Origin: Pleurocapsa sp. PCC 7319
Lineage (GTDB): Bacteria > Cyanobacteriota > Cyanobacteriia > Cyanobacteriales > Xenococcaceae
Reading direction: 5' to 3'
Length of the DNA: 64,000 nt
Assembly: GCF_000332195.1 (NCBI RefSeq)
Contig: NZ_KB235922.1
Coordinates: 5,925,322-5,989,321, forward strand
The notes below the pieces were generated by a model. The model saw nothing but the letters and a program-made list of their open reading frames with translations, was not told where the DNA came from and ran no database searches. Position 1 is the stretch's first letter. Each line of letters starts with the position of its first letter. This document shows positions 1 to 17,040 of the stretch, piece by piece. A program made the translations under genes and the position numbers.

Positions 1-1
1 T

Positions 2-1444
2 TGTATCTCTCTAGAGCTTAAAACCCACGCCCTGCCCTATCGTCCTCAATGCCCTACCTGTGGCAATCCGAAACTACTGCACCAACGGGGCTTTGAACCG
101 ATTCAACTTCGTTCTCGCCTCAAGCAATTTACTAGTGATGGCGGTCATCGGGCTGTAACCCCCAGCCAAACCGTAGAGAAGCATCGACATTTAATTAGCC
201 CAATTTCGGGAGTTGTAACCGAGTTGGTGCGAATTTCTGACCCTAGCAATCCGTTGGTGCATACCTATCGAGCCAGTCATAGCTTTGGTAATGCTACTTC
301 CCTAAAGGGTTTGCGTCATGCTCTACGCTATAAAAGTTCTGGTAAAGGAAAAAGCGATCGCCAGTCCCAAGCCAGTGGTTTTTGCGAGGCAGTAGAACGC
401 TATTCTGGTATCTATCAGGGAGATGAGCCTCGGATTCGGGCAACCCTAGCCGAGTTAGAGGGAGCAATACATCCCGAACAATGTTTGCTGTTTAGCGATC
501 GCCAGTACGCCAACCGCGAGATTTTAAATCAACAAAAGACCGTCGCTCACGACTGGATACCCCAACGGTTCGATCCGACTCAGGCGATCGACTGGACACC
601 AGTATGGTCGCTGACAGAACAGGTTCACAAGTACTTACCTACCGCTTTTTGTTATTATGCCTATCCCTTACCTAAAGACCATCGTTTCTGCAAAGCCGAC
701 TCTAACGGTAATGCTGCTGGCAATACTTTAGAAGAAGCAATTTTACAAGGATTTCTGGAACTGGTAGAACGGGATAGCGTAGGTTTATGGTGGTACAACC
801 GTCTACAGCGACCCCAGGTAAATTTGGCTAGCTTTGACGAGCCATACTTTTTACAACTACAAGAATTTTATCGGCAAAACAACCGCGAACTTTGGGTATT
901 AGATGTAACTGCCGATTTAGGGATTCCTGCCGTTACTGCCTTGTCTCGCCGTACCGATGGCAACACAGAGCGAATTATTGCTGGGTTTGGTTGCCACCTC
1001 GATCCTAAAATTGCTATTTTACGAGCCTTGACTGAAGTAAACCAACTCGGTCTAGAGTTAGACAAAATTCCCGCAGAGGAACTAGGGGCAGAATTCAAAC
1101 AGTGGATGCTGAGCGTAACTCTAGAGAATCAGCTCTATCTCGCTCCCGATACCACCGTTCCAGTGAAGACTGCTCAGGATTATCCTCAAAGCTGGAGCAA
1201 TGATATTTATACAGATGTCATGACCTGTATCGAAATTGCTCGGCAAGCGGGGTTAGAAACCCTGGTGCTAGATCAGACGCGACCCGATATTGGTTTGAAC
1301 GTAGTCAAGGTAATCATTCCAGGAATGCGCCACTTTTGGTCGCGGTTTGGTGCAGGGCGACTGTATGACATACCCGTAAAGCTGGGCTGGCGGGATACAC
1401 CATTACCAGAAGCACAAATGAATTCAATTCCGATGCCTTTTTAA
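2..1444 (+). CDS. Cyanobactin YcaO-type cyclodehydratase (PatD/TruD-like), 5' end outside window
   Basis: The frame is open from base 2, so the gene begins upstream; an internal GTG at 224 is not the true start. Near the left edge the translation shows a CPTCG zinc-binding motif, then GGHR and a HLISPISGVV stretch, which together mark the start of the YcaO domain of TOMM cyclodehydratases. Further on come SGKGKSDRQSQASGFCEAVERY and ALTEVNQ-type nucleotide-binding segments, and the protein ends in the Pro-rich tail IPMPF, as expected for the C-terminal PxPxP-like motif needed for catalysis in this family. Known role: ATP-dependent conversion of Cys (sometimes Ser/Thr) in the precursor core to azolines. 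It lies 134 bp upstream of three precursor genes on the same strand, so its substrate is almost certainly encoded next door. The E1-like N-terminal half expected for PatD/TruD cannot be seen here. Confidence 0.9.
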   Translation, partial: CISLELKTHALPYRPQCPTCGNPKLLHQRGFEPIQLRSRLKQFTSDGGHRAVTPSQTVEKHRHLISPISGVVTELVRISDPSNPLVHTYRASHSFGNATSLKGLRHALRYKSSGKGKSDRQSQASGFCEAVERYSGIYQGDEPRIRATLAELEGAIHPEQCLLFSDRQYANREILNQQKTVAHDWIPQRFDPTQAIDWTPVWSLTEQVHKYLPTAFCYYAYPLPKDHRFCKADSNGNAAGNTLEEAILQGFLELVERDSVGLWWYNRLQRPQVNLASFDEPYFLQLQEFYRQNNRELWVLDVTADLGIPAVTALSRRTDGNTERIIAGFGCHLDPKIAILRALTEVNQLGLELDKIPAEELGAEFKQWMLSVTLENQLYLAPDTTVPVKTAQDYPQSWSNDIYTDVMTCIEIARQAGLETLVLDQTRPDIGLNVVKVIIPGMRHFWSRFGAGRLYDIPVKLGWRDTPLPEAQMNSIPMPF

Positions 1445-1578
1445 CGAACGGTTTTTGCAGCCACTTTATATACGCTTCAAATAATGCTGCTGACAAGCTT
1501 CTTCCCAAATAAGAAGGAGAGGTTAGACCCACCTATAAGCGGTCAGATTAAACTAACACTCTCTTTGGAGAAAATTTT

Positions 1579-1776
1579 ATGGATAAGAAAAACATCATCC
1601 CCCAACAGGCACAGCCCGTACAACGATCTACTCAGGGAACTAAAGCCGACTTACTCGCTGAATTAACTGAAGAAAACCTCGGCACTGTAGCTGGAGCAAC
1701 TGCTTCTATGGTGACAGATAAAGTCTCAATGGCTTGCTATTGTGCTTGTTCCTATGACGGTGATGAAGCGGAATAG
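1579..1776 (+). CDS. Cyanobactin precursor peptide 1 (PatE-like)
   Basis: This 65-residue peptide begins MDKKNIIPQQAQPV, very close to the MxKKNIxPQxxQPV leader start of PatE and trichamide precursors. Residues in the LLAELTEENLG stretch match the leader recognition helix (LAELSEEAL in PatE). A GATAS segment sits where PatE has its N-terminal protease site (GLEAS). The predicted core is MVTDKVSMACYCAC, followed by the macrocyclase recognition tail SYDGDEAE, which is nearly the trichamide tail SYDGDDE. The core ends in Cys, which would become the C-terminal azoline needed by PatG-type macrocyclases, and has three Cys in CYCAC spacing. A GGAG Shine-Dalgarno (TTTGGAGAAAATTTT) precedes the ATG. 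Product structure is inferred only. Confidence 0.93.
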   Translation: MDKKNIIPQQAQPVQRSTQGTKADLLAELTEENLGTVAGATASMVTDKVSMACYCACSYDGDEAE

Positions 1777-1801
1777 CTGTTAGTGCTACGTTTCATGAAA
1801 T

Positions 1802-1846
1802 CAGAGAAAGCCCCAATTTTAACTGTTAAAAGACGGGGTATCTCTG
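1802..1846 (+). promoter_or_regulatory. Long hairpin between precursor genes 1 and 2
   Basis: Three nested complementary blocks are visible: CAGAGA with TCTCTG, CCCC with GGGG, and a perfect TTTTAAC-T-GTTAAAA centre. There is no U-tract after it, so it looks more like an RNA-processing or stability hairpin than a simple terminator; partial attenuation is possible. Confidence 0.6.
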
Positions 1847-1980
1847 GCAAATAATGTAGAACTTAAAGCTCGATTATATACGGTAGCCAAGTTGTTTGGG
1901 TAACATCCATTCGCTTAGAGCAAACCCGATGTTAGTCAAATATCTGGCTTCCGCGATCGGCTCAAACAAAGGAAAAACTC

Positions 1981-2175
1981 ATGGATAAGAAAAACATCAT
2001 TCCCCAACAGGCACAGCCCGTACAACGATCTACTCAGGGAACTAAAGCCGACTTACTCGCTGAATTAACTGAAGAAAACCTCGGCACTGTAGCTGGAGCA
2101 ACTGCTTCTATGGTGACAGATAAAGTCTCAACGGCTTGCTATTGTGCTTGTTCCTATGACGGAGATGAAGCGTAA
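1981..2175 (+). CDS. Cyanobactin precursor peptide 2 (PatE-like)
   Basis: Leader identical to precursor 1; the predicted core MVTDKVSTACYCAC differs by a single residue (Met8 to Thr). The tail is SYDGDEA and is one residue shorter because the final GAA codon of copies 1 and 3 has become TAA here, immediately followed by the TAG used by the other copies. The ATG is exactly 402 bp after that of precursor 1. GGAAAAACTC precedes the start, a weaker ribosome site than that of copy 1 and shared with copy 3. A Ser/Thr to azoline change at the new Thr is possible but cannot be judged from sequence. Confidence 0.92.
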   Translation: MDKKNIIPQQAQPVQRSTQGTKADLLAELTEENLGTVAGATASMVTDKVSTACYCACSYDGDEA

Positions 2176-2203
2176 TAGCTGTTACTGTTTCGTTTGACGA
2201 AAT

Positions 2204-2248
2204 CAGAGAAAGCCCCAATTTTAACTGTTAAAAGGCGGGGTATCTCTG
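2204..2248 (+). promoter_or_regulatory. Long hairpin between precursor genes 2 and 3 (second copy)
   Basis: Same three paired blocks as the hairpin at 1802-1846 (CAGAGA/TCTCTG, CCCC/GGGG, TTTTAAC/GTTAAAA). A difference (AAAGGC in place of AAAGAC) falls in an unpaired position, so stem pairing is kept. No equivalent exists after precursor 3. Confidence 0.58.
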
Positions 2249-2382
2249 ACCAATAATGTAGAACTTAAAGCTCGATTATATACGGTAGCCAAGTTGTTTG
2301 GGTAATATCCAATTCCTTAGGGCAAACCCGATGTTACTCAAATATCTGGCTTTTCTAATCGGCTCAAACAAAGGAAAAACTC

Positions 2383-2580
2383 ATGGATAAGAAAAACATC
2401 ATTCCCCAACAGGCACAGCCTGTAGTGAGGGTAACTCAGGGAACAAAAGCCGACTTACTAGCTGAGTTGACCGAAGAAAATCTCGGCACTACAGTTGGAG
2501 CGACTGCTTCACTAGTTACAAATAACGTAACCTTAGCTTGCTATTGTGCTTGTTCCTATGACGGAGATGAAGCGGAATAG
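2383..2580 (+). CDS. Cyanobactin precursor peptide 3 (PatE-like), diverged core
   Basis: Same leader start and LLAELTEENLG recognition segment, but with changes in the linker (QPVVRVTQ instead of QPVQRSTQ; GTTVGATAS instead of GTVAGATAS). The predicted core LVTNNVTLACYCAC differs from copy 1 at positions 1, 4, 5, 7 and 8, while V2, T3, V6 and the ACYCAC end are invariant. The tail SYDGDEAE is unchanged. This is the usual cyanobactin pattern of conserved leader and recognition sites with a varying core, and it suggests that ACYCAC is structurally essential. ATG lies 402 bp after that of copy 2 with the same upstream GGAAAAACTC. Confidence 0.92.
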   Translation: MDKKNIIPQQAQPVVRVTQGTKADLLAELTEENLGTTVGATASLVTNNVTLACYCACSYDGDEAE

Positions 2581-3011
2581 TTAGCTACTGTTTCGTTTGA
2601 TTGATTCCAGGTTATCAAAAAGCTTTTAGCCGTTAGCTATTAGCTATTAGCTATTAGCTATTAGCTTCAATTAAATAGAGTCTTAAACTATACCTGGTAA
2701 CTAAGCAGCAAACTCTTAAGAGTTTACGAAACTGGTGCGTTAGCTAATCACTTTAACGCACCATAAAGGGCTTCGCCCCAGCTATAGGCTATAAACTTCA
2801 ATCAAATCAGCATGGAGTTTTAGATCCCAACTGATTGACGGACAAAGTATAGACGCGCTTGGTATTAACCCCTTTGAGCTTTTTAAGTTTTTGACAAGCG
2901 AAAGAGCATTAATAAGTATCAGCTTGGAGCTTAAGGCTTAGAGCTAAAAGCTTTTGATAAACACTAATGATTTTCAGGTTTTACAAGCAATTTCCAGCGA
3001 GATAGGGCATT
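2581..3011 (+). other. Non-coding gap between precursor 3 and the PatG-like gene
   Basis: No convincing gene. It contains a heptanucleotide tract (2633-2667) and degenerate AGCTTAAGGCTTAGAGCT-type repeats near 2926-2955, a motif family seen again near 38080-38115. Nothing resembling PatF (prenyltransferase-like) fits here. Confidence 0.7.
2633..2667 (+). repeat. Heptanucleotide tandem repeat (TTAGCTA)4 TTAGCTT
   Basis: Four perfect TTAGCTA units plus a fifth ending TTAGCTT. The reverse complement TAGCTAA is the unit of the tract at 45165-45199. This matches the STRR (short tandemly repeated repetitive) class known from cyanobacteria. Confidence 0.9.
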
Positions 3012-6000
3012 ATGCTAGATTACGGCAATTTAGAAGTAGGGACATTAGCGATCGCCATACCAATGGTAGACACAGCAGAATTAAACGCGATCGCGCCTGA
3101 TTGGAGCGAAACTGCGGTTAGTTTATCTCGCTTTGCTTATCAACGCCAATACGATGGTGAAATGGTGCTAGAGTCCCCCCTATCTAAATTCCGCATTAGG
3201 TTGTTGGACTGGCGGGCTAGCGGTTTATTGGCTCTTTTGGCTCAACCCCAGTCAATTGCTACTCTTACCGCCTTTGCGGATTTATCTCCTGAAATTATCC
3301 AACAATTTTTACATCTACTATGGGCGACACAGTTTCTGACTACCGAATCAGAACCGCGTAACGAAGTCATGCCGTCAGGCTTATCGCTTCAGGTTTGGGA
3401 ATTTCATAATCTTCTGTTTCACAGTCGCAGTCGTTCGGGTCGTCACGATTATCCTCTGACTCACGGAGAGCAATTTACCGATTTACTGCCTCAAATTTCA
3501 GCGGTGAAACCACCAATGAGCGATAAAGTCGTCCCTTTACCGCGACCCAATTTAGCAATTATTACTCAAGGAGATTTAACTTTAACCGAGGCGATCGAGA
3601 CGCGACAGTCGATTAGGGAATACGACGATACTCATCCCATAACTTTAGAACAATTAGGTGAACTGCTATATCGTACCGCTCGTGTTAAAGATATTTATCA
3701 ATTAGATGAATCGCAACTAGACTGCGAGCTTACCCATCGTCCTTATCCTAATGGAGGTAGCCTCTACGAACTAGAAATTTACCCCGTGGTGCGTCACTGT
3801 GAAGGACTCGAATCGGGTCTTTATCACTACGACCCCCTCAATCATCAGCTAGAAAAACTTACAGACAACAATGCCCACATTGATTCTTTGATTACTCACG
3901 CATATAAAACTAGTGGCGAACACGATAAGCCTCAAGTGCTGCTGGTAATGACAGCCCGTTTTGAACGACTATTTTGGAAGTATGCCTTTGGAGCTTATGC
4001 CTTAATAGCAAAGCACGTTGGCGTACTGTATCAAAATCTCTATCTGGTAGCCAATAGTATGGGGTTAGCTTCCTGTGGGTTAGGCAATGGGGATAGCGAG
4101 TGCTTTGCCCAAGCCACAGGCTTAGACTATATCCAAGAATCTTCCGTGGGCGAATTTATGTTAGGTTCTCTACCCCGTCGGGATACCACTAAACCCGAAA
4201 CAGAAACTACTGTCACCAAACCTATTGCACTACATCCCCACGACCTCGACGATCGCCTACCAGGACTTGCCAATTTACGCGATCGCACTTTAGGCGATTC
4301 TCGTGTTACAGTGGTAATTCTCGACAGCAATCCCAACAACCAACTGTCTTGCTTTGAGGGGGCTAACCTTTCTAAAGTATTTCCCCATTGGCATGAAGCT
4401 CCAGAGCCTATTTCTGCCGAAGCTTACGCCATTTATCGAGACATTGATAATAGCGACCTCAAAAAAGAGGAAAAGCTGGCAAAAATTAGGGCTGTTCTGC
4501 CTGAAGAGATCATCAATCGGATCAAAGGAGATCATCATGCGTCCCATATCACCAGCACCATAGTGGGTCAGGAAAATACCCCAGCTCCTGGTATCGCTCC
4601 CGATTGTCGCGTTATTAATATCCCGCTCAACACTACAGGTGACAACGAAGAATTTATTTCGGTTCTTAACTTAGCTCGTGGCTTTGAGCTAGGCCTAGAA
4701 TTAGGCGCAAACATCATTCACTGTGCAGCTTGTCGTCCTACCCAAACAGGTGAAGCTCAGGATTTACTAAAACAGGCAATTAAAAAATGTTTAGACAACA
4801 ACATTTTAATAGTTGCGCCAGCGGGGAATAATAAAGGCGAATGCTGGTGTATTCCCGCAGTGCTGCCAGGAGTTTTAGCCGTAGGGGCAATGAAAGATAA
4901 TGGTAAACCGTTTAAGTTTAGTAATTGGGGCGGTAACTACCAACTTGAAGGTATTTTAGCTCCTGGGGAGAAGATTTTAGGGGCGCAACCAGGTACAGAA
5001 GAACCCAAACGGCTAACGGGAACAAGTATGTCTGCACCAGTAATGACGGGTATTATTGCACTGCTGATGAGCTTGAAACTACAACAGGGTAAGCCGATTG
5101 ATGCTGAAGCGATCCGCGCTGCTTTGCTTAACACGGCAATTGTCTGCGATGCTCAAGAGGTTGAAGAACCAGAACGCTGCCTCAATGGTAAGCTCAATCT
5201 CCCTGGAGCAATGAATTTGTTATTTGGGCAACCTTCGGTCAGCATTTCCTTTACAGGCAACAGCGTTACTCGCATTGATGACGGTCATTTTATCGCAGCT
5301 TCTGGTAAAAACGAGGATTTAAATAACGCTCCACCCCTCAATCCCAATTTGCCAGCTACTCCTTATCTACCTTCAAGTGTAAGTGGTTCGGCAGCTCCCA
5401 TTTTATCTAATTCGCCCATTCCAGAAAGTGCTTCGGTTCGAGTAGAACCTGACTCAGCATCCAACCCTCAAGCCCAAATTACACCATCGTCCATCACCGT
5501 AGCCCCATCTGGTGTAACTCCTAGCACCGCTCACAGCGGACAGATCTACGCCCTTGGCACTCTTGGTTATGATTTTGGTAGCGAAGCCCGACGGGATTCT
5601 TTCAAACAACTCATGTCCGCCGTCAATGTGGATAGTCTACTGGTTCCAGCTAATCCCTATGACGCATGCCAAATGGTGGATTATTTAGACCGCAATCCGT
5701 CTGAAAGTCGCTCTTTGATCTGGACTGTAAATATGGATTTAACTCCCATTTACGCCATCGAACCTCAAAATCCTTTCGGAGCGGAAATTTACGAAATACT
5801 TCTAATGCTGCTTGCAGGACAAATAGAGCCAGAAGATAGCGACGAGTTTGTGGAGCGAGTTAGCATTCCCGCCCGTCTTACTTCGCGCACTGTCGAGTTG
5901 TTTTCGGGTCAGGTAGTGCCTGTGATCAAATTACGTAACCTCCGAGGCATCTATGGCTGGAAGGTAAATACCCTGGTAGATGCAGCACTAGCAACAATAG

Positions 6001-6365
6001 TAGAATCAAGCGAGGTAGATGATATACGGCGATCGCTCTTTAGTTTTCTCAATCGAGTCTACTACGACCTGCGTAACTTAGGACAAACTTCCCGCGATCG
6101 CGCTTTAAACTTTGCTGCTACCAATGCTTTTCAAGCTGCCTCTGTATTTGCTCAAGCGATCGCTGAAGGACGGGAGTTAGACACCATCGAAGTGGAAAAA
6201 AGTCCGTATTGTCGTTTACACAGTGATTGTTGGGATGTCAAACTCAAATTTTTCGATCCCGAAAATAGTCGTCGCGCCCGTAAACTATACCGATTCACCA
6301 TTGATGTAGCAGATTGGGTTCCTGTGACTCTAGGTGAAGTGAAATCCTGGTCAATACCCAATTAA
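3012..6365 (+). CDS. PatG-type cyanobactin protein: azoline oxidase fused to subtilisin-like macrocyclase
   Basis: At 1117 residues it has three parts. Residues about 1-400 are a SagB/ThcOx-like nitroreductase (FMN azoline oxidase): ETRQSIREYDD, NGGSLYELEIYPVVR and FWKYAFGAYALIAKHVG are typical. Residues about 425-720 are an S8 protease domain with Asp438 (VVILDS), His509 (HASH) and Ser672 (GTSMSAP). Asp-His and His-Ser spacings of 71 and 163 residues are close to those of PatG, and the long Asp-His interval with helical sequence (AEAYAIYRDID onward) fits the capping insertion that converts this protease to a macrocyclase. A Pro/Ser-rich linker (about 780-835) leads to the conserved PatG C-terminal domain of unknown function. 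Known role: oxidise azolines to azoles, cleave before SYD, and close the ring. Start ATG at 3012; the preceding GGGC is a weak ribosome site. Confidence 0.93.
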   Translation: MLDYGNLEVGTLAIAIPMVDTAELNAIAPDWSETAVSLSRFAYQRQYDGEMVLESPLSKFRIRLLDWRASGLLALLAQPQSIATLTAFADLSPEIIQQFLHLLWATQFLTTESEPRNEVMPSGLSLQVWEFHNLLFHSRSRSGRHDYPLTHGEQFTDLLPQISAVKPPMSDKVVPLPRPNLAIITQGDLTLTEAIETRQSIREYDDTHPITLEQLGELLYRTARVKDIYQLDESQLDCELTHRPYPNGGSLYELEIYPVVRHCEGLESGLYHYDPLNHQLEKLTDNNAHIDSLITHAYKTSGEHDKPQVLLVMTARFERLFWKYAFGAYALIAKHVGVLYQNLYLVANSMGLASCGLGNGDSECFAQATGLDYIQESSVGEFMLGSLPRRDTTKPETETTVTKPIALHPHDLDDRLPGLANLRDRTLGDSRVTVVILDSNPNNQLSCFEGANLSKVFPHWHEAPEPISAEAYAIYRDIDNSDLKKEEKLAKIRAVLPEEIINRIKGDHHASHITSTIVGQENTPAPGIAPDCRVINIPLNTTGDNEEFISVLNLARGFELGLELGANIIHCAACRPTQTGEAQDLLKQAIKKCLDNNILIVAPAGNNKGECWCIPAVLPGVLAVGAMKDNGKPFKFSNWGGNYQLEGILAPGEKILGAQPGTEEPKRLTGTSMSAPVMTGIIALLMSLKLQQGKPIDAEAIRAALLNTAIVCDAQEVEEPERCLNGKLNLPGAMNLLFGQPSVSISFTGNSVTRIDDGHFIAASGKNEDLNNAPPLNPNLPATPYLPSSVSGSAAPILSNSPIPESASVRVEPDSASNPQAQITPSSITVAPSGVTPSTAHSGQIYALGTLGYDFGSEARRDSFKQLMSAVNVDSLLVPANPYDACQMVDYLDRNPSESRSLIWTVNMDLTPIYAIEPQNPFGAEIYEILLMLLAGQIEPEDSDEFVERVSIPARLTSRTVELFSGQVVPVIKLRNLRGIYGWKVNTLVDAALATIVESSEVDDIRRSLFSFLNRVYYDLRNLGQTSRDRALNFAATNAFQAASVFAQAIAEGRELDTIEVEKSPYCRLHSDCWDVKLKFFDPENSRRARKLYRFTIDVADWVPVTLGEVKSWSIPN

Positions 6366-6499: not shown

Positions 6500-8803
6500 A
6501 TGACTAACAAAAATAAGATTCAAACAGTTGTTAAATTCGACGATACCTTCTATCTCAAAAATAAAAGCGGTCAATACTTAATTGCTGCCGATAATGGACG
6601 CTATTTTTTTCCTCAGTTAGATCGTAGTGGTCAAACAAAGCTACAGCTTAAAGGTAAGACGGGAGAGCTTCAGCACAATGACAATATAAAAATTAGGTCT
6701 TTAGAAACGCAGTTAGGCGATCGCAATATTTTAGGTGCTTTCAGCGATAGTCGTAACTGTTATTACTGGGATGATGGTTACGACGAAGACAAACAAAACT
6801 GGAAGATTACCAACGCGTCTGGCGAAAGAGGTAAGATACGTTATGGAGATGAAGTTTACCTAACTAACGTTCATTACGACAATCAGACTTTAGCTATCGA
6901 TCCCAAGAATCCAGGTTATCTAACTACCGTTAAAAATGCTAAAGAAGTCTGGATTTTAGAAACTACCCAGAAGCAGAGTCCTACTGTAGTATCTAGCACT
7001 CCCAAATCTAGTGTATTTGGTTTGTCAGTAGCATCAGGCGATCCGACACCTACAGGGGTAATCCTTTGGACGAGAATTAATCCTGAAGCTTGTGACGGAA
7101 ATATTACCTTAAAATATGAAGTTTCTCGCCAGAGAGAATTTAAAGAAACCGATATTGTCATTTCAGAAGATATTCCTAACTCAAAATTTGGCAAAGAAAC
7201 CGACTATACGGTCAAGGTAGATTTAGATACAAAGCTAGAGCCAGATCGGACTTATTTTTATCGCTTTATTTATGGTGAAGCAACCAGCCCCATTGGTCGT
7301 TGCAAAACCCTTCCTAGAGAAAATGAGCGAATCGAAAAGCTCCGCCTAGCAGTTATAACCTGTAACGATTACAGCACTGGTTACTTTAACGCTTTTTATC
7401 ATTTAGCAGAAGAAGATGTTGATTTTGTAGTTCATTTGGGGGACTTTGTTTATGAATATTCCCAATATCCTCCTAATTATGGAGAGGTCTACCGTAAAGA
7501 TATTTACTGGGAAGAAGACGATTACGGACAATCTTCTTCAGAAACTCAAAGAGCCACATCATTAGAAAACTTCCAGCAAATTTATCGTACTTATCGTCAA
7601 GATCTTGCGCTTCAGGCTGCGATGGAACAGCATACCTGGATGATAACTTTAGACGATCACGAAGTCGCCGATAACTGGTATTGGGATCGAGAGGCTGAAA
7701 CCATAAGTGTAGATGGACACCCTGTTGCGGAAAAGACAAAAGACGAAAGTCTTGAAAAGAAAAGAAAAGCAAGGGCTAAACTCTATAACAGCGCGATTAA
7801 AGCGTGGATGAATTATGTTCCTGCTCGACTCCAAAAAGCTGACACTAAAGAAGTAGAATCAAGTAACACCCAAGAACCAGAAATACTCGAAGGACTCGAA
7901 CTTCATAAGAACCTAATCTATAGACGGTTCCGCTTTGGCTCATTGGTCGATTTTTTCCTAACCGATAGCCGTAGTTTTAGAAGTAAGCCCGATCTAGACT
8001 CCGACAATCCAAATCCTCAAGCAACTATGTTGGGTAAAAATCAAAAAAAATGGTTGATCGAGGGCGTTAAAAATTCCAATGCTGCCTGGAAGGTGTGGGG
8101 AAATCAAACACTTTTAGCAACTGCATGGTTCAATGCTTGGTATAAGCCCGATTTAATTGACGACTGGCAAGCATACATGGGTGAACGTCGTGAGATTTTG
8201 CAAGCCGTCAAAGACAGTGAAACCAAAAAACACAACACTAATAAAGCAAGTCGTTTTGTGGTCTTTACGGGAGATATGCACACTTCGATGATTTCCTATC
8301 TGAAGACTGATTTTGAAGGAAAAAGAAACAAAATTAACATGGATTATAGCAAACTTGCTGGTGTAGAATTTATGACTCCAGCCTTAACTTCACCAGGAGT
8401 ATCAGAAGGAGCTCGCTCAGAAATAGACAAGTTTGTATCTACTGTGGCAGGTGCTACCGAAATTACCTCTGATATTGCTAAAATTGCTGAAAAATTGCCC
8501 AATTTACCTTTTTTCTCAAATGACAGCAGTGATGATGCTGGTGAAGGAAGTAAATTGCATAAAGCGTCTATAGCAGAGTTGACCAAGCGTTTTAGTCCCC
8601 ATATCGAACACTATGACTCATCAATTAACGGATATGCGATCGCTGAGTTCACACCTTCCGAAATGAGATGGGAAGTATTTGCAATCAACAAGTCAGATTA
8701 TGATGTCGCAGACGATGGTCGCAACATATCCAAAAGAGGAGCGCGTAAGCATCTTGCCAAATCGATGAAATATTATCCAGATACCATCACGCTGGATGAT
8801 TAA
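6500..8803 (+). CDS. PhoD-like alkaline phosphatase/phosphodiesterase with N-terminal beta-trefoil-like domain
   Basis: The protein has 767 residues. Residues about 10-155 form repeated strands of the type FYLKNKSGQYLIAADN, WILETTQ, resembling fascin/ricin-like beta-trefoil repeats. Residues 165 on are PhoD: VASGDPTPTGVILWTRINP, the metal-binding HLGDFVYEY (Asp315), LDDHEVADNWYWD (Asp385, His387), VWGNQTLLA, and TGDMHTS (Asp592, His594). PhoD enzymes hydrolyse phosphate mono- and diesters with Ca/Fe. Unlike classic PhoD there is no Tat signal peptide, so location is unclear. The start ATG follows AGGAATAACACC. The frame continues for 48 codons past the TAA (see 8804-8950). It sits in tandem with the DUF2853 and lipase genes. 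Confidence 0.85.
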   Translation: MTNKNKIQTVVKFDDTFYLKNKSGQYLIAADNGRYFFPQLDRSGQTKLQLKGKTGELQHNDNIKIRSLETQLGDRNILGAFSDSRNCYYWDDGYDEDKQNWKITNASGERGKIRYGDEVYLTNVHYDNQTLAIDPKNPGYLTTVKNAKEVWILETTQKQSPTVVSSTPKSSVFGLSVASGDPTPTGVILWTRINPEACDGNITLKYEVSRQREFKETDIVISEDIPNSKFGKETDYTVKVDLDTKLEPDRTYFYRFIYGEATSPIGRCKTLPRENERIEKLRLAVITCNDYSTGYFNAFYHLAEEDVDFVVHLGDFVYEYSQYPPNYGEVYRKDIYWEEDDYGQSSSETQRATSLENFQQIYRTYRQDLALQAAMEQHTWMITLDDHEVADNWYWDREAETISVDGHPVAEKTKDESLEKKRKARAKLYNSAIKAWMNYVPARLQKADTKEVESSNTQEPEILEGLELHKNLIYRRFRFGSLVDFFLTDSRSFRSKPDLDSDNPNPQATMLGKNQKKWLIEGVKNSNAAWKVWGNQTLLATAWFNAWYKPDLIDDWQAYMGERREILQAVKDSETKKHNTNKASRFVVFTGDMHTSMISYLKTDFEGKRNKINMDYSKLAGVEFMTPALTSPGVSEGARSEIDKFVSTVAGATEITSDIAKIAEKLPNLPFFSNDSSDDAGEGSKLHKASIAELTKRFSPHIEHYDSSINGYAIAEFTPSEMRWEVFAINKSDYDVADDGRNISKRGARKHLAKSMKYYPDTITLDD

Positions 8804-10202: not shown

Positions 10203-10268
10203 ATTGAATTAAGGCGATCGCCATATTGTCCCCCTGCGTTTATCACAAGAATATCAACCCAGTAATAA

Positions 10269-10622
10269 CTATTCTCCATATTCTTGTTTCAAGTTTTCAT
10301 AATATTTTCGTTGAGCTTTTTCTACTAACTTCGGGTCTTGCCTTCGTCTAGCAATAGGTTGCGTTAGATCCGAACTTTCCACCACGCGAATTTTGATTTC
10401 ATCCCCTATTTTCAAATGACGTTTAATCCAATCTAAATGCTCGTCATCGTGTCTGGCGTGATGAAGCAAACCGCCTACCTGTAGCTCAATACTATCTAAG
10501 TTTTCATTCTTATCTCTCAAAGCATTGTGGTAACAAAGGATAAAGGAAAGTACTGAAATTTCCTCCATTCCAGCAACAATTTTTGTCTCGTCATTGATGG
10601 CTATTTCAAATGCAATACCCAT
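10269..10622 (-). CDS. Hypothetical protein, 117 residues
   Basis: I do not recognise this protein. It begins MGIAFEIAINDETKIVAGMEE, has a central HHARHDDEHLDWIKRHLKIGDEIKI segment rich in His/Asp, and a charged helical C-terminus (ARRRQDPKLVEKAQRKYYENL). The DEHLDWIKRHLKIGDEI pattern suggests a small alpha/beta domain, and the codon use is normal. It converges with the lipase gene and lies downstream of the toxin-antitoxin pair on the same strand, about 70 bp away, so it might belong to that unit. Confidence 0.55.
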   Translation of the reverse strand: MGIAFEIAINDETKIVAGMEEISVLSFILCYHNALRDKNENLDSIELQVGGLLHHARHDDEHLDWIKRHLKIGDEIKIRVVESSDLTQPIARRRQDPKLVEKAQRKYYENLKQEYGE

Positions 10623-10691
10623 ATTTTTAGCTAGTTACAGTATGGCGATCGTCCATCTTAACAAGTTTCTATTAAGAGTTAAACTTTGAAA

Positions 10692-10961
10692 TTAGAGATT
10701 ATCGTAAATTTCCTGACGATGCCCCACACGAATTATTACAATTAGCAGAACGTTATCCTCAACCGTATAGATAACTCTGTAATTGCCAACTCTAATTCTA
10801 AAATACTCGTTATTTTCCCCTTTTAATTTTTTACAACCAAAAGGTCGAGGATTTTCGGCAAGTTTTGCTATTGCCATTTTGATTCGTTGTATTTCTTTAG
10901 CAGAAATCGAGCGCAAATCTTTTTTAACACGGCGATCAAACTCGATCCGATAGCGACTCAC
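10692..10961 (-). CDS. RelE/ParE-superfamily toxin
   Basis: This 89-residue protein has the RelE-like layout: YRIEFDRRVKKDLRSI at the N-terminus, the basic FGCKKLKGENNEYFRIRVGNYRVIY core with the conserved RVGNYRVIY strand, and IIRVGHRQEIYDNL at the end. Members usually cleave mRNA on the ribosome. The start is GTG at 10961; an ATG two bases upstream is out of frame and reads straight into TGA. The start is one base from the antitoxin stop, which implies translational coupling. Confidence 0.88.
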   Translation of the reverse strand: MSRYRIEFDRRVKKDLRSISAKEIQRIKMAIAKLAENPRPFGCKKLKGENNEYFRIRVGNYRVIYTVEDNVLLIVIIRVGHRQEIYDNL

Positions 10962-10962
10962 A

Positions 10963-11226
10963 TTAGACCTCTAATTCCGAGAAAAATTCGTCAAAACTCA
11001 ATCTCTCTTGTTTTGAATCAGTCATTCGCAGTTCTGCTTCTTGAATATCGGCTCGATCTTCTGCTTGCTGTAAAAGTTTTTGAAATAATTCGTAGTCTTT
11101 AGCTGGAATCATATAAACAGGCTCTTTCCCAGAACGCTTGATCGCAATATGCTCTGAACCATAAGCTACATGATTCAGTGTATCGGCAAAATGATTTCTC
11201 GCTTTTCCAGAAGATAGGGAACGCAT
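10963..11226 (-). CDS. Phd/YefM-type antitoxin
   Basis: The 87-residue protein starts RSLSSGKARNHFADTLNHV and continues HIAIKRSGKEPVYMIPAKDYELF, the Phd/YefM DNA-binding fold; the acidic C-terminus (LSFDEFFSELEV) is the likely toxin-wrapping segment. It precedes the RelE-like toxin, and a near-perfect palindrome lies just upstream of its ATG, as expected for autoregulation by the antitoxin or the complex. Confidence 0.87.
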   Translation of the reverse strand: MRSLSSGKARNHFADTLNHVAYGSEHIAIKRSGKEPVYMIPAKDYELFQKLLQQAEDRADIQEAELRMTDSKQERLSFDEFFSELEV

Positions 11227-11238
11227 AATTTAAACTCT

Positions 11239-11260
11239 GTACTCTATGTACATAGTGTAC
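11239..11260 (-). promoter_or_regulatory. Palindromic operator of the toxin-antitoxin operon
   Basis: A 22-bp palindrome centred on CTATGTACATAG and flanked by GTAC at both ends; only one base pair is mismatched. It ends 13 bp before the antitoxin ATG, a position that suits autorepression. Confidence 0.65.
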
Positions 11261-11340
11261 CCTAATATTAATACTATCTTATCTTTACTACTAAAGCGAT
11301 CGCACCTCCGATATTAGAAAAGCGATCGCTATACTGTAGA

Positions 11341-13452
11341 TTAAATTTCAGCTATTTCAACAGTAGAAGTAACTGAAAAAGGTAAAGGAATATCAAAATT
11401 AGGTTCAATATCTAACTCCACAGTAATCGAGTCAGCTACATCACCAATACCCAAACCAGCATCAGTTACTAAAAATTCAGCTAGATCTTCAGTTATGACT
11501 TCCAAGAAGTCGCCATCAGCAGGATTATCAGCAAGATAATTCTCAATAGAATCAGCTATTTCTTCAACAGACAAAAACTCACTATCTTCAATGCCTGAAA
11601 CATAGTTGAGATCGAATGTTACATCAACCACTGCTTCACGTGCAGGAACCAGAAGATCGTTTAGCTCAAAAGAAATTGAGGTCGAAGTGGATGTATTTAA
11701 ATCGGTAGAAGTATCGAGGATGGTAAAGCTGGCTGCATTGACTTCCGAATCAATACCATATTCATCAGACTCGGATAAAGCAAAGCTAACGCTCTCTTCA
11801 CCTTCTGTTGTATTGTCGGCAATAATGTCATTAACTAAAGTAGCCTCGGTTGCGCCTTCTGCGAGGGTAACTAATGCCTGTTCGATTAAACCAGATTCTT
11901 CATTAATTATTAGTTCAAAGTCGGTAACGTTTTCACTACCATCGACAAAGTAAGTAATATCCCCAGGCAAAGGATCGGTGTCCTCGACTAAATCCAGTGC
12001 GACAGTCAAACCGCCTTCACCTACAGGTTCAGTAAGCTCAAAGTTCCATAGCAGTTGCGAACCTTCTTCTACTTCAGTTGGTTCTGCTACTACACTTATT
12101 GTTGGTAAGTCAGTGGAAGTATCCGCATCGGAAATAGTGGTGGTAATTTCATTTTGGTCGGGATTGATCGAATAGCCATTTCCTTCAGCGATCGCTGTAG
12201 TAAATACTTCTTCTCCTTCAGCTACATCATCACTGATAGCTTGAGAGACTAAGACTGCTTCGGTTTCTCCTTCGGCGATCGTGATATTAAAGCTTTCGGA
12301 TACACCCTCTTCAACAACAAACTCAAAATCGGCTATATTGCTACTGCCATCGATGTTATACTCTACGTCTCCTGGAGCGGGGTCATTATTAAAGGTAATT
12401 GGGAGAGATAAAGCTAAACCTCCTTCTGGTGCGGGTTGAGAAAGACTAATATTCCAGCTAAAGGTTTCTCCCTCGGTAACACTGACATTTTCTGGAGTAA
12501 TGCTTACTGTAGGTAAGTCAGTAGAGGTATCGGCATCAGTAAGAGTAGTAATTACATTATTCTGCGCAGGGTTAGCGCGGTAGTTTTCTCCATCAGCTAT
12601 TACGGTGGTAAAAACTTCTTCTCCTTCTTCAACATCATCTGCTACAACCTCAGAAACCAAACTAGCTTCTGTCACCCCCTCTGCAATAGTCAGATTAAAC
12701 CCAATAGAAACATCATCTTCAACTACAAATTCAAAGTCGCTAATGTTGCTGCTACCGTCGATGTTATATTCTACGTCCCCAGGTGCGGGGTCATTATTGT
12801 CGGTTACGGGAAGGAATAAAGTCAGTCCGCCTTCTGGTGCGGGTTGATTCAAACTAAAGTCCCAAGTAAAAGTATTGCCTTCTGCTGCGGTTGCTTCTTC
12901 CGTCACTAAACTAACCACAGGTAACTCAGTGATAATTGTAGTCACCTCATCTTGTTCAGAATCTGCTTGATAATCTTCGCCATCAGCAATAACAGTAGTA
13001 AAGCTTTCATCAGTTTCTGTTATGTCATCGCTTACCGCTTCGGATACTAAGGTTGCTTCTGTCGCGCCTTCGGTGATAGTCAGATTAAAGCCAACAGATA
13101 AGTCATTATTAGTTACGAATTCAAAATCTGAAATATTCTCGCTACCGTCGATGTTGTATTCCACATCCCCAGGTGCGGGGTCGTTATTAACTGTAATCGG
13201 CAGAAATAGGGATAAACCTCCTGCTGGTGCGGGTTGGTCTAAGCTAAAGTTCCAAGCAAAGGTTTCGCCTTCGGTAGCAATTAAAATTTCTGGAGTAATG
13301 CTAACTGTAGGGGAAGTCATATTGTCCTCAATAGTGGTAGTAATAGTGGTGGAATTAGGATCGGCAATGTAAGTTTCGTCTGGCAATAGACTCAGAGAAT
13401 AGGTTTCATCACCTTCGTCAAGATCGTCTGCGATCGCGGAAATACCAAACAT
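11341..13452 (-). CDS. Calx-beta-like repeat protein, copy A, main part (broken gene)
   Basis: 703 residues in one open frame. It holds the second half of a first Calx-beta-like module, then four full modules: three nearly identical ones with GDVEYNIDGS.NISDFEFV and ITEGxTEAxLVS motifs, and one diverged one with GDITYFVDGSENVTDFEL. A C-terminal domain follows, beginning TSTSISFELNDLLVP. Such acidic repeat proteins are usually extracellular and Ca-binding. The first module is cut by a TAA at 13456-13458; restoring one Glu codon (GAA) would fuse this frame with the upstream piece at 13456-13722. The ATG at 13450-13452 lies one codon after that TAA, so restart by termination-reinitiation is possible. 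Function unknown; probably a cell-surface or secreted protein. No signal peptide is visible. Confidence 0.72.
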   Translation of the reverse strand: MFGISAIADDLDEGDETYSLSLLPDETYIADPNSTTITTTIEDNMTSPTVSITPEILIATEGETFAWNFSLDQPAPAGGLSLFLPITVNNDPAPGDVEYNIDGSENISDFEFVTNNDLSVGFNLTITEGATEATLVSEAVSDDITETDESFTTVIADGEDYQADSEQDEVTTIITELPVVSLVTEEATAAEGNTFTWDFSLNQPAPEGGLTLFLPVTDNNDPAPGDVEYNIDGSSNISDFEFVVEDDVSIGFNLTIAEGVTEASLVSEVVADDVEEGEEVFTTVIADGENYRANPAQNNVITTLTDADTSTDLPTVSITPENVSVTEGETFSWNISLSQPAPEGGLALSLPITFNNDPAPGDVEYNIDGSSNIADFEFVVEEGVSESFNITIAEGETEAVLVSQAISDDVAEGEEVFTTAIAEGNGYSINPDQNEITTTISDADTSTDLPTISVVAEPTEVEEGSQLLWNFELTEPVGEGGLTVALDLVEDTDPLPGDITYFVDGSENVTDFELIINEESGLIEQALVTLAEGATEATLVNDIIADNTTEGEESVSFALSESDEYGIDSEVNAASFTILDTSTDLNTSTSTSISFELNDLLVPAREAVVDVTFDLNYVSGIEDSEFLSVEEIADSIENYLADNPADGDFLEVITEDLAEFLVTDAGLGIGDVADSITVELDIEPNFDIPLPFSVTSTVEIAEI

Positions 13453-13455
13453 TGC

Positions 13456-13722
13456 TTATGTAGCACCTTGAGTAATGGTCAAACTGGCGATATTTGTGCC
13501 GTCTGATTCAACCTGTCCGAAATCAACAATATTGCTAATCAGTTCGGGAAGAAATTCGGGATCGACCCCTTCACCATCGAGAGTGCCGATATTTAATTTG
13601 ACGGTTAAGCTTCCTGCTGGTGCGGATTCGCTGAGATGGAAAGTTAAATGCTGTGGCTGACCTCCTTCGGTAATTTGGGTGCGATCGGCAGTAAAGCTAA
13701 CTATGGGTAAATTTTCACTCAT
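13456..13722 (-). CDS. N-terminal piece of Calx-beta-like protein, copy A
   Basis: From ATG 13722 the frame reads MSENLPIVSFTADRTQITEG and ends TITQGAT before TAA. It is the first half of a Calx-beta-like module whose second half (AMFGISAIADDLDEGDETY) follows in the same frame after the stop. I chose ATG 13722 rather than the TTG at 13773 because the next conserved strand begins right after it and AAGAG lies just upstream. Alone it would be an incomplete fold. Confidence 0.6.
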   Translation of the reverse strand: MSENLPIVSFTADRTQITEGGQPQHLTFHLSESAPAGSLTVKLNIGTLDGEGVDPEFLPELISNIVDFGQVESDGTNIASLTITQGAT

Positions 13723-14224
13723 TACTCTTGATTGGTTACGAAATAGATACGCACTCGATCGCTTGCCATTCAAATAAGACAGCCATTACAAAGTTGACCC
13801 TCTTTTGCAAGCGTTGAAAACTAATTAAAATTGCTGCCGATGGCGATCGCTGCTATGAGTTTTATCAATTACAATTTGACAAGTATTATTGATAAAGATA
13901 TATCGCTAATTCTTGTAAAAGAATCTTATACTTATTTGCTCACATTTTTACCTAATAAATAATTAGTTTTGTCTGTAATTTAAACAAAAAGGTAATGTAA
14001 GAAAAGTAAGATAGTATAATCTTTAAAAGATAAATATTAATAAGTATACTAGTCTATCAAAAATCTATATTCGCAAAAAAACAGTTTAACTAGTAAACCA
14101 AAGATTAAAAATATTTGATTTTTGATCAAAACAAGTTTAATTTTTTATATTGTAAATCATAAACCTTAATCGATTTAAGACACAATAATAATTGCGATCA
14201 CGGAAACTGGAATAGGTTCATTTT
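13723..14224. other. Non-coding 5' flank of Calx-beta copy A
   Basis: A very AT-rich stretch without convincing genes, nearly identical to 17311-17815 (for example the TTTACCTAATAAATAATTAG region). It presumably holds the promoter of the Calx-beta gene. Its right end abuts the 3' end of the decayed sensor gene. Confidence 0.6.
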
Positions 14225-15032
14225 TTAGTTCCAGAATTCATCCAAATCTACTTCTTCAATCTCCTTTTGTACCTGCTGGAAGTAATTGCTTTTAGTCAGC
14301 ATAGCTACTTCCTTTTCTCGTTTGTTGTGGTCGATTTCGATCTTTAATTCCTTTAATTGCTTTCTTAATTCCGCTTCGCGACGTTTGCGATCGCTGATAT
14401 CTTGAACGATACCTTCGTAATAGAGAACCTGACCGCGATCGTCTTGAACCACGCGAGCATCGATTTGCGTCCAGATAATGCTGCCATCTTTGCAATAGCA
14501 GCGATATTCAAAGTCTTTAGCTTTACCTTCTTTGGTCATTAATCTCCTAAACTCGGCTCTTTTTTCGGGATCGACATAAACCTGTTCGCTAATATCGGTA
14601 ACACTCTCTAACAATTCTTGGGGCGAATCGTAACCGTATATCTTTGCCAGTGAGGGATTGACGCTTACGTAGTAGCCTTGGGGTGAAGATTGAAAGATAC
14701 CTTCGAGAGCATTTTCAAAAATACTGCGGTAGTTTTCTTCGGCAATTCTTAAAGCCTCTTCTGCACGCTTGCGATCGCTGATATCGAAGATTACGCCATC
14801 TAAATAAAGGCTAATTTATCCGAAGCATCAGAAATTCTCAAAATCGGACGAGTTACCCAACGAGCTGTAGCAATACCAATAACGATCGCTCCTATTAAAG
14901 CAGCCGAACACAACAATACTGTATTGCGGGTATTTTCATGTATCTGCGCCATAAAGTCTTTTTCTGGCACTACCACCACCGTCAACCAGTCTATACCTCG
15001 TCCATCATTTATCGGCACGACACGAGCATAAT
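14225..15032 (-). pseudogene. Decayed sensor gene: Cache end, TM, HAMP start, then PAS domains
   Basis: Read from right to left: RYYARVVPINDGRGIDWL and VVVVPEKDFMAQIHENTR are the end of a periplasmic Cache domain, followed by a TM helix (LLCSAALIGAIVIGIATA) and a HAMP start (RWVTRPILRISDASDKLA). The frame then breaks at about 14815 and resumes in another frame as LYLDGVIFDISDRKRAEEAL, the end of a PAS domain, then a second PAS (FQSSPQGYYVSVNPSLAKIY to YYEGIVQDISDRKRREAEL) and a C-terminal tail ending YFQQVQKEIEEV. An internal deletion with frameshift therefore joined HAMP to PAS. The 5' end is cut exactly where duplication copy B begins (15033). Confidence 0.82.
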
Positions 15033-15078
15033 AGCGATCGCACCTCCGATATTAGAAAAGCGATCGCTATACTGTAGA

Positions 15079-17040
15079 TTAAATTTCAGCTATTTCAACA
15101 GTAGAAGTAACTGAAAAAGGTAAAGGAATATCAAAATTAGGTTCAATATCTAACTCCACAGTAATCGAGTCAGCTACATCACCAATACCCAAACCAGCAT
15201 CAGTTACTAAAAATTCAGCTAGATCTTCAGTTATGACTTCCAAGAAGTCGCCATCAGCAGAATTATCAGCAAGATAATTCTCAATAGAATCAGCTATTTC
15301 GCCAACAGACAAAAACTCACTATCTTCAATGCCTGAAACATAGTTGAGATCGAATGTTACATCAACCACTGCTTCACGTGCAGGAACCAGAAGATCGTTT
15401 AGTTCAAAAGAAATTGAGGTCGAAGTGGATGTATTTAAATCGGTGGAAGTATCGAGGATGGTAAAGCTGGCTGCATTGACTTCCGAATCAATACCATATT
15501 CATCAGACTCGGATAAAGCAAAGCTAACGCTCTCTTCACCTTCTGTTGCATTGTCGGCAATAATGTCATTAACTAAAGTAGCCTCGGTTGCGCCTTCAGC
15601 CAGAGTAACTAATGCCTGTTCAATTAAACCAGATTCTTCATTAATTATTAGTTCAAAGTCGGTAACGTTTTCACTATCATCGACAAAGTAAGTAATATCC
15701 CCAGGCAAAGGATCGGTGTCCTCGACTAAATCCAGTGCGACAGTCAAACCGCCTTCACCTACAGGTTCAGTAAGCTCAAAGTTCCATAGCAGTTGCGAAC
15801 CTTCTTCTACTTCAGTTGGTTCTGCTACTACACTAATAGTTGGTAGAGTGGGTTCGATGGTTTCAGCAAATAATCTAACATTATCAAAGTCAACTAATTT
15901 GACATTATTATCAACTTCCAAACCAGAAGTTTCTGCAATGTTAACCAAGCGGATTTCTAATTCTTCTCCCAAGGAAGAGTGCATTTCAGGGGCAGTGAAG
16001 GTCACAGTAGAGGTTTCAAATACTCCTTCTGCAATACTGAGGCTGTTATTATCTTGAGCGAGAACTTCTCCACCTGCAACTAATTCTACTCGGTAGCCTG
16101 GGAAACCCGACAAATCCGCTCGAACAAAGGGATTTGGTGCGGGATTGCCAACATCAACCTGTAAGGTGTAGCGAGTATTGGCAGTCAACTGTTCGTCAAG
16201 AGTTTGACTTAAACCGACAACACCACTACCAACTTCATCGAGGATAAAGCTATAGCCAGCGTTTTTGCCATCAGGAGCGTCCTCTGAGTAAAAGTTACTG
16301 ACATTTGATATTCCTGCATCTGTAAAATTAACTGCACCAGGAGTAAGCGGAATACCTGTAAGCAAACCATTAGGATTATATGCTTTCCACCCTGGAACAG
16401 AATCTTGGGTAGGCGATTCTGTAACCGAAAGAAAGAAATTACCTGGCGACTCTTCAGGAGAGGGTAAAGCAGGAATTTCAAAACTGAAGTTTTCGATGGA
16501 GACAGCATTATCACCGAAGGAAGTATCTTCAATAGTGGTAGTTACTTCACTGTTCTCGGAATCGACTAGATAACCATCTCCTTCGGCGATCACTGTAGTA
16601 AATACTTCTTCTCCTTCAGCTACATCATCACTGATAGCTTGAGAGACTAAGACTGCTTCTGTTTCTCCTTCGGCGATCGTGATATTAAAGCTTTCGGATA
16701 CACCCTCTTCAACAACAAACTCAAAATCGGCTATATTGCTACTGCCATCGATGTTATACTCTACGTCTCCTGGGGCGGGGTCATTATTAAAGGTAATTGG
16801 GAGAGATAAAGCTAAACCTCCTTCTGGTGCGGATTGAGAAAGACTAATATTCCAGCTAAAGGTTTCTCCCTCGGTAACACTGACATTTTCTGGAGTAATG
16901 CTAACTGTAGGGGAAGTCATATTGTCCTCAATAGTGGTGGAATTAGGATCGGCAATGTAAGTTTCGTCTAGCAATAGACTCAGAGAATAGGTTTCATCAC
17001 CTTCGTCAAGATCGTCTGCGATCGCGGAAATACCAAACAT
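15079..17040 (-). CDS. Calx-beta-like repeat protein, copy B, with inserted jelly-roll-like domain (broken gene)
   Basis: 653 residues. The N-terminal 60 residues and one module (GDVEYNIDGSSNIADFEFV) match copy A, as does the C-terminal module plus end domain. Between them is a domain of about 230 residues absent from copy A: it begins VSIENFSFEIPALP, contains DSVPGWKAYNPNG, NTRYTLQVDVGNPAPNPF, and ends VKLVDFDNVRLFAE, the pattern of a galactose-binding-like or PEP-CTERM-associated beta-sandwich. As in copy A the frame starts one codon after a TAA (17044-17046) that interrupts the first module. Likely extracellular; function unknown. Confidence 0.72.
   Translation of the reverse strand: MFGISAIADDLDEGDETYSLSLLLDETYIADPNSTTIEDNMTSPTVSITPENVSVTEGETFSWNISLSQSAPEGGLALSLPITFNNDPAPGDVEYNIDGSSNIADFEFVVEEGVSESFNITIAEGETEAVLVSQAISDDVAEGEEVFTTVIAEGDGYLVDSENSEVTTTIEDTSFGDNAVSIENFSFEIPALPSPEESPGNFFLSVTESPTQDSVPGWKAYNPNGLLTGIPLTPGAVNFTDAGISNVSNFYSEDAPDGKNAGYSFILDEVGSGVVGLSQTLDEQLTANTRYTLQVDVGNPAPNPFVRADLSGFPGYRVELVAGGEVLAQDNNSLSIAEGVFETSTVTFTAPEMHSSLGEELEIRLVNIAETSGLEVDNNVKLVDFDNVRLFAETIEPTLPTISVVAEPTEVEEGSQLLWNFELTEPVGEGGLTVALDLVEDTDPLPGDITYFVDDSENVTDFELIINEESGLIEQALVTLAEGATEATLVNDIIADNATEGEESVSFALSESDEYGIDSEVNAASFTILDTSTDLNTSTSTSISFELNDLLVPAREAVVDVTFDLNYVSGIEDSEFLSVGEIADSIENYLADNSADGDFLEVITEDLAEFLVTDAGLGIGDVADSITVELDIEPNFDIPLPFSVTSTVEIAEI

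What the first reader, a model, noticed from the sequence alone, without database searches (positions are those of the whole stretch)
1579..2580. Three-precursor cyanobactin cassette with a trichamide-like C-terminus and new cores
Three PatE-like peptides carry predicted cores MVTDKVSMACYCAC, MVTDKVSTACYCAC and LVTNNVTLACYCAC before an SYDGDEA(E) tail. The ACYCAC end is invariant while the N-terminal half varies. The leader and tail match known cyanobactin rules, but I do not recall these cores from described products. With a fused oxidase present, up to three thiazoles in a 14-residue ring are plausible.
Basis: partly seen in the sequence, partly recalled or inferred. Interest (0 to 1): 0.75.

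Follow-up and report, generated by a model that had tools for sequence, protein, structure and literature searches.

The report
Three-precursor cyanobactin gene cluster
A cyanobacterium carries an ordinary, apparently complete set of genes for making ring-shaped, sulfur-heterocycle peptides (cyanobactins), with three closely related precursor genes whose product sequences look new but whose chemistry is of a well-known kind.

Summary
Three tandem ORFs (window 1579-1776, 1981-2175, 2383-2580; starts 402 bp apart) are cyanobactin precursors: Pfam DUF5837 E 1e-32 to 1e-34, NCBIfam patellamide/microcyclamide model over cut-off. They lie in a 10.4-kb A-B-C-C'-D-E1-E2-E3-G cluster; A to C' and the start of D lie upstream of the window. 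G is a fused oxidase/macrocyclase with catalytic residues and insert in register with PatG; D is closest to LynD among solved structures. No F prenyltransferase was found in the genome.

Likely products: 14-residue head-to-tail macrocycles with up to three thiazoles from ACYCAC. Ring size and heterocycle number are inferred; a shorter core is the main rival.

Qualifications: the SYDGD tail is not specific for trichamide (44 of 98 panel precursors hold SYDGD). ACYCAC is identical even at silent sites, which also fits recent duplication or gene conversion. CYCAC is in none of 98 related precursors, but close analogues exist (CSCSC, SYCAC, CPCVC).

Verdict: a new member of a known kind; new sequence, ordinary pathway, low to moderate interest.

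The parts
1..1444 (+). 3' part of the D gene (YcaO cyclodehydratase, TruD/LynD type); the full 767-aa gene starts upstream at L004:13463 (window base 1 = L004:14323)
   Evidence: PF02624 E 1e-103, TIGR03604 over cut-off; best solved chain LynD 4v1t, 1190 bits
1579..1776 (+). E1 precursor; leader to residue 43 with LAELTEENL and GATAS, predicted core residues 44-57 MVTDKVSMACYCAC, tail SYDGDEAE
   Evidence: PF19155 E 1.1e-32, TIGR03678 E 1.4e-13
1777..1980 (+). E1-E2 spacer with two predicted stem-loops; 91% identical to the E2-E3 spacer, no other copy in the genome at E 0.01
   Evidence: no Rfam match at E 0.5
1981..2175 (+). E2 precursor; predicted core MVTDKVSTACYCAC, tail SYDGDEA
   Evidence: PF19155 E 2.3e-32
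2176..2382 (+). E2-E3 spacer with the same two predicted stem-loops
2383..2580 (+). E3 precursor; predicted core LVTNNVTLACYCAC, tail SYDGDEAE; mosaic relative to E2
   Evidence: PF19155 E 2.4e-34
3012..6365 (+). G protein, 1117 aa: thiazoline oxidase (37-380), subtilisin-type macrocyclase (about 404-745; D438, H512, S672) with macrocyclisation insert (about 465-500), PatG_D and PatG_C domains
   Evidence: TIGR03895, TIGR03605, PF22767, PF00082, PF18047, PF18065; PatG 4h6x 503 bits, CyaGox 5lq4 324 bits

Best explanation
A complete cyanobactin cluster (A, B, C, a second C-like gene, D, E1-E3, fused Ox-G) makes two or three related macrocyclic peptides. Steps inferred from characterised homologues: D binds the leader (LAELTEENL) and converts Cys53, Cys55 and Cys57 to thiazolines. 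Protease A cuts after GATAS (Ser43). G removes SYDGDEA(E) after Cys57 and joins Cys57 to residue 44, giving a 14-residue ring. The oxidase part of G aromatises thiazolines to thiazoles. No prenylation is expected because no F gene was found. Shown here: the genes, their domains, catalytic residues in register with PatG, and precursor family membership. Not shown: expression, cut sites, number and oxidation state of heterocycles, ring closure, biological activity.
For: Precursor family and leader. Maturation genes on one strand over 10,444 bp. G carries an insert that its paralogue A lacks; over that stretch it aligns with PatG with one single-residue gap at the end. D438, H512 and S672 lie in register with PatG (which His is catalytic is recalled). 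D is 60-71% identical to the six D proteins aligned with it. Core start: GATAS aligns with GASAS in one of two precursors of L037 and one of three of L038, the two named loci with the best D scores; GxxAS occurs in 19 of 98 panel precursors. Core end: Cys before SYDG; 23 of 98 panel precursors, trichamide's among them, have C-x-C before such a tail. F: best whole-genome hits E 0.48 (TIGR04445) and 0.42 (PF19156), both far under cut-off.
Against: The 2015 review gives 6-11 residues for heterocycle-bearing cyanobactins and 6-20 overall, so a 14-residue heterocyclic ring lies outside the range known then. The GxxAS site is not general: the other precursors of L037 and L038 read GASAG, GISPG and GVQAS, and the next two loci by D score (L028, L039) have none. 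PatF is reported essential for patellamide production although patellamides are unprenylated, and none was found here; but 14 of 27 A+D+G loci of the panel also lack an F match in the fetched stretch. No promoter-like site beyond chance in 1400-3100 (3 found, 2.8 expected; a sigma-70 consensus only). No expression or mass data.
Confidence: 0.7

Rival explanations
1. The true core is shorter: a 7-residue (xACYCAC) or 6-residue (ACYCAC) ring, with MVTDKVS/LVTNNVT being leader or spacer.
For: 7 residues lie inside the 6-11 range reported for heterocyclic cyanobactins; ACYCAC is the constant part, and E1 and E2 differ within the core only in the residue just before it. GxxAS is absent from most panel precursors (79 of 98), so cut sites vary.
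Against: GATAS is in register with GASAS of relatives, whose cores would then be 11 and 18 residues; DKVS or NNVT was not noticed as a cut site in the precursors listed (read by eye).
Confidence: 0.14
2. The cluster works as described but only some cysteines are heterocyclised, or Thr/Ser of the N-terminal half too, with mixed azoline and azole; a disulfide may form from unmodified Cys. (Overlaps with the best explanation, which does not fix the number.)
For: C-x-C-x-C array and extra Thr/Ser in the core; the review reports thiazoles, thiazolines, oxazolines and a spontaneous disulfide in known members.
Against: Nothing in the sequence decides it.
Confidence: 0.3
3. The cluster is silent or decaying and makes no product.
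For: No F gene found; sporadic distribution, 0 of 26 other genomes sampled from genus and family have the precursor family.
Against: ORFs are intact; Shine-Dalgarno-like GGAG, AAAGGA and GAGATAGGG before E1, E2-E3 and G (read by eye); catalytic residues kept.
Confidence: 0.12

Closest known systems
Aesturamide (lyn) / patellamide (pat) type clusters
   Same: Oxidase fused in G; LynD is the best-scoring solved D and PatG the best-scoring solved G. Gene order A to G is recalled as similar.
   Different: No F gene found; three single-core precursor genes; predicted core of 14 residues. That pat and lyn precursors hold repeated cores is recalled.
Trichamide (tri, Trichodesmium erythraeum)
   Same: Single core per precursor ending CxC|SYDGD; no F match in the locus (L056).
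   Different: tri has bidirectional gene order, one precursor and a separate oxidase (ox and G apart in L056); core GDGLHPRLCSC; D 60% identical.
Arthrospira and Phormidium FACHB-1136 loci (L051, L049)
   Same: Several single-core precursor genes, some Cys-rich; L049 has ...IMCSCSC|SYDGDDE and no F match in the fetched stretch.
   Different: Different leaders (TPNPQQPVDR...) and different N-terminal core halves; L051 has an F match.
Pseudanabaenales MAG.87 (L037) and Anabaena azotica FACHB-119 (L038)
   Same: Closest D proteins among named loci (69 and 68% identity); some precursors with DLLAELSEE and GASAS.
   Different: Cores such as WVFCNADLGQC, RLTPKTCSSLFLWEVGLC, IDTGIRYGGSNCGIPYIC; no ACYCAC.

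Membership tests
Cyanobactin biosynthetic cluster | PatE-type precursor | tested here: met
   PF19155 and TIGR03678 over cut-off for all three
Cyanobactin biosynthetic cluster | N-terminal protease A | tested here: met
   L004:10244-12256, TIGR03895 940 bits
Cyanobactin biosynthetic cluster | C-terminal protease/macrocyclase G with macrocyclisation insert | tested here: met
Cyanobactin biosynthetic cluster | B and C genes | tested here: met
   TIGR04220 122 bits; TIGR04447 50 and 49 bits in two C-like ORFs
Heterocyclic cyanobactins | D cyclodehydratase and Cys in the core | tested here: met
   three Cys per predicted core
Heterocyclic cyanobactins | Oxidase (present in part of the family) | tested here: met
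   PF22767 and TIGR03605 in G
Heterocyclic cyanobactins | Core of 6-11 residues (range of products in the 2015 review, not a rule) | tested here: inconclusive
   14 residues if cut after GATAS; the cut site itself is predicted, not shown
pat/lyn/tru-type clusters | F prenyltransferase | tested here: not met
   whole-genome searches with TIGR04445 and PF19156 gave no hit near cut-off
Trichamide (tri) cluster | separate oxidase, bidirectional order, one precursor | tested here: not met
   fused oxidase, one strand, three precursors
Cyanobactin product | N-C macrocycle with azol(in)es | not testable with these tools
   needs mass spectrometry

The most novel reading that the evidence does not exclude
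The cluster makes unprenylated 14-residue macrocycles with three alternating thiazoles (Thz-Tyr-Thz-Ala-Thz), larger than the 6-11 residues listed for heterocyclic cyanobactins in 2015, made without an F protein, with the variable half of the core exchanged between precursor copies by recombination while the azole half is kept.
Probability: 0.38. Interest if true: 0.4.

Novelty: new member of a known kind. Interest (0 to 1): 0.25.

Why it matters
It adds up to three predicted cyclic peptides and a natural substrate set (one enzyme set, three related precursors) from a lineage in which 0 of 26 other sampled genomes of the genus and family carry the precursor family. Chemically it would test whether a LynD/PatG-type pathway closes a 14-residue ring with three alternating azoles without an F protein. 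Mechanistically it adds nothing that the family does not already show.

Tried and rejected
Looked for the precursor by back-translated patterns in genome contigs with E1 alone: 211 pattern matches, none confirmed as a relative. Repeated with an alignment of seven D proteins: 123 relatives, the best 80 kept, 79 distinct loci. Looked twice for an F prenyltransferase in the whole genome: none. Looked for known RNA families in L004 9500-19901: none at E 0.5. Considered that the spacers are a genome-wide repeat: rejected, only the two copies here at E 0.01. Considered intrinsic terminators between the E genes: none found in 1400-3100 (1.4 expected by chance); one stem-loop is followed by a short TTTT. 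The stem-loops fold with z -3.30, -2.00, -2.79 and -3.30; a role in mRNA stability or attenuation is a guess. Considered a specifically trichamide-like cluster: rejected on oxidase fusion, gene order and D identity.

Literature for the core; 111 papers hold at least three of cyanobactin, precursor, core peptide, ACYCAC; the 40 listed, which come first if they hold all four, have no ACYCAC. CYCAC anywhere, 78 papers, 20 listed, none of those 20 on cyanobactins by title; the other 58 were not seen; at least two of cyanobactin, two core strings and SYCAC, 0 papers. Supplements and most subscription papers could not be searched, so earlier genome surveys may list these cores.

Organism: my guess of Pleurocapsa sp. 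PCC 7319 rests on recall of genome size and contig number and was not tested. In passages of three papers that name that strain I saw no cyanobactin cluster ascribed to it (passages only; in PMC7381351 the word cyanobactin occurs once, in the reference list). PMC3877893 (passages) reports no A gene by PCR in the Pleurocapsales strains tested (five strains).

The mosaic boundaries in E2/E3 (codons 12/13 and 51/52) were chosen after seeing the differences, so the Fisher values (5e-5 for all bases, 0.008 for silent codons) overstate significance.

Full report
OBSERVATION. All three match Pfam DUF5837 (PF19155) over its 63 positions at E 1.1e-32, 2.3e-32 and 2.4e-34, and the NCBIfam leader model TIGR03678 over its cut-off. 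E1 matches PatE chains of the LynD entries 4v1u/4v1t (E 2e-11 and 1.7e-10). They are the only PF19155 matches at E 0.001 in the 7.387-Mb genome.

THE CLUSTER. The window begins inside the D gene. The upstream stretch L004 shows on the same strand A (10244-12256), B (12307-12504), C (12622-12864), a second C-like ORF (ATG at 12894, to 13358) and the whole D (13463-15766). In the window follow E1, E2, E3 and G (3012-6365). Together 10,444 bp at 44.8% G+C, against 40.0% upstream and 39.3% downstream. The next gene, a PhoD-like phosphatase at 6500-8803, is not a known cyanobactin gene. The second C-like ORF joins a transthyretin-like N-terminal part (weak Pfam match, under cut-off) to a PatC-type C-terminus; its N-terminal 112 residues had no tblastn match at E 0.01 in the 86 other loci of the panel database.

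G is a three-part protein: oxidase (PF22767, TIGR03605), subtilisin-type protease, and PatG_D/PatG_C. Against solved chains the protease part scores 503 bits with PatG (4h6x) and the oxidase part 324 bits with CyaGox. D438, H512 and S672 lie in register with PatG's D, H and S (which His is catalytic is recalled). The segment 465-500, missing from the paralogue A, aligns with PatG with one single-residue gap at its end. D scores best with LynD (1190 bits), then TruD (1138), and is 60-71% identical to six other D proteins.

NO F PRENYLTRANSFERASE FOUND. Whole-genome searches with TIGR04445 and PF19156 gave only chance-level matches (E 0.48 and 0.42). The 2015 review PMC4663559 (abstract, and its sections 3, 4.1-4.3 with the head of 4 as far as part 1 of 2, 5.4, 5.7, 5.8 and 6.1 seen) says F seems present in all cyanobactin pathways but trichamide's. 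In the panel here 27 of 79 named loci hold D and separate A and G matches of over 300 bits; 13 have an F-like match and 14 do not within the fetched stretch; 24 have an oxidase match, 21 of these close before G as if fused. The F queries were two F-like ORFs, so distant F proteins or ones outside the stretch are missed; two of the 14 are from alphaproteobacteria. Lack of F is therefore not unusual.

COMPARISON OF CORES. Precursor-like peptides were collected by a regex from 79 loci (30 gave one or more) and by a leader HMM, built from those hits and two of the window's own, from 116 loci (76 gave one or more). The set leans to similar leaders and may hold a few spurious ones. It has 102 distinct peptides, 3 from this window and 1 with masked residues dropped. 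Of the remaining 98, 23 have C-x-C directly before an [SA][YF] tail, 5 have C-x-C-x-C, 1 has YCAC (L128: SDSYCAC|SFDGDEE) and none holds CYCAC before the tail. So the exact core was not found, but the style is common: IMCSCSC (Phormidium FACHB-1136), MCPCVC (Planktothrix), ICPCMC (Brasilonema), MCSCRCVC (L131). The trichamide precursor is in the panel (L056: GDGLHPRLCSC|SYDGDDE). The tail is not specific for it: 44 of 98 hold SYDGD.

WHERE THE CORE STARTS. GATAS stands over GASAS in one precursor each of L037 and L038, the named loci with the best D scores. That puts the start at residue 44 and the length at 14. Against this: their other precursors read GASAG, GISPG and GVQAS; L028 and L039, next by D score, have no such site; and GxxAS occurs in only 19 of 98. 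The review gives 6-11 residues for heterocyclic cyanobactins and 6-20 overall, so a 14-residue ring would be long for that group, and a 7-residue reading (xACYCAC) is kept as a rival.

HOW THE THREE COPIES RELATE. The E1 and E2 units are identical at 379 of 402 bases; their coding parts differ at two silent codons, M51T and codon 65. E2 and E3 are identical over codons 1-12 (0 of 36 bases differ) and 52-64 (0 of 39) but differ at 31 of 117 bases in codons 13-51, where 12 codon changes are silent and 9 are not. So E3 is a mosaic: the ends were homogenised, or the middle was exchanged. The invariance of ACYCAC extends to silent sites and cannot be read as selection alone. The boundaries were chosen after the fact. 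The spacers hold two predicted stem-loops each, have no further copy in the genome, match no Rfam family at E 0.5, and no terminator-like site was found in 1400-3100.

DISTRIBUTION. None of the other 59 genomes of the relatives sample (12 of the genus, 14 of the family, 33 of the order; some incomplete) has PF19155. 8 of 388 of the class sample (own included, 7 over cut-off) and 36 of 388 of the order sample (own included, 35 over cut-off) do. With the higher G+C this fits horizontal gain, but loss elsewhere is not excluded.

MECHANISM. Inferred from the homologues: heterocyclisation by D guided by the leader, cut by A after GATAS, cut and ring closure by G at Cys57/SYDG, oxidation by the fused oxidase. 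None of it was tested by experiment.

VERDICT. Real, correctly read, and a new member of a known kind. The exact cores were not found in the open-access full texts searched (in one search only 20 of 78 papers were listed) nor in 98 related precursors; supplements and most subscription papers were not searchable.

Noticed in passing
L004:3133-7646 (upstream of the window): PQQ biosynthesis genes pqqA-B-C-D-E beside a glucose/sorbosone dehydrogenase-like gene, about 2.6 kb upstream of the cyanobactin A gene.
   Followed up: partly
L073 and L077: Cyanobactin-type A, B, D and G matches and PatE-like precursors in contigs titled Bradyrhizobium sp. LTSP885 and Sphingomonas sp. ERG5, G+C 61.5 and 61.9%, so perhaps truly alphaproteobacterial; the 2015 review says such clusters are known only from cyanobacteria. 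One paper search listed one unrelated paper.
   Followed up: partly
L004:12894-13358: A transthyretin-like domain (weak match) fused to a PatC-type C-terminus beside a normal C gene; its N-terminal part had no counterpart in 86 other panel loci.
   Followed up: partly
window 1777-1980 and 2176-2382: Two predicted stem-loops in each spacer between precursor genes, without a terminator-like T-run by scan; function unknown.
   Followed up: partly
window 11341-13452 and 15079-17040, - strand: Two long ORFs starting with nearly the same sequence (MFGISAIADDLDEGDETYSLSLL) and sharing long stretches, apparently duplicated repeat proteins, perhaps Calx-beta-like (name recalled, not tested).
   Followed up: no
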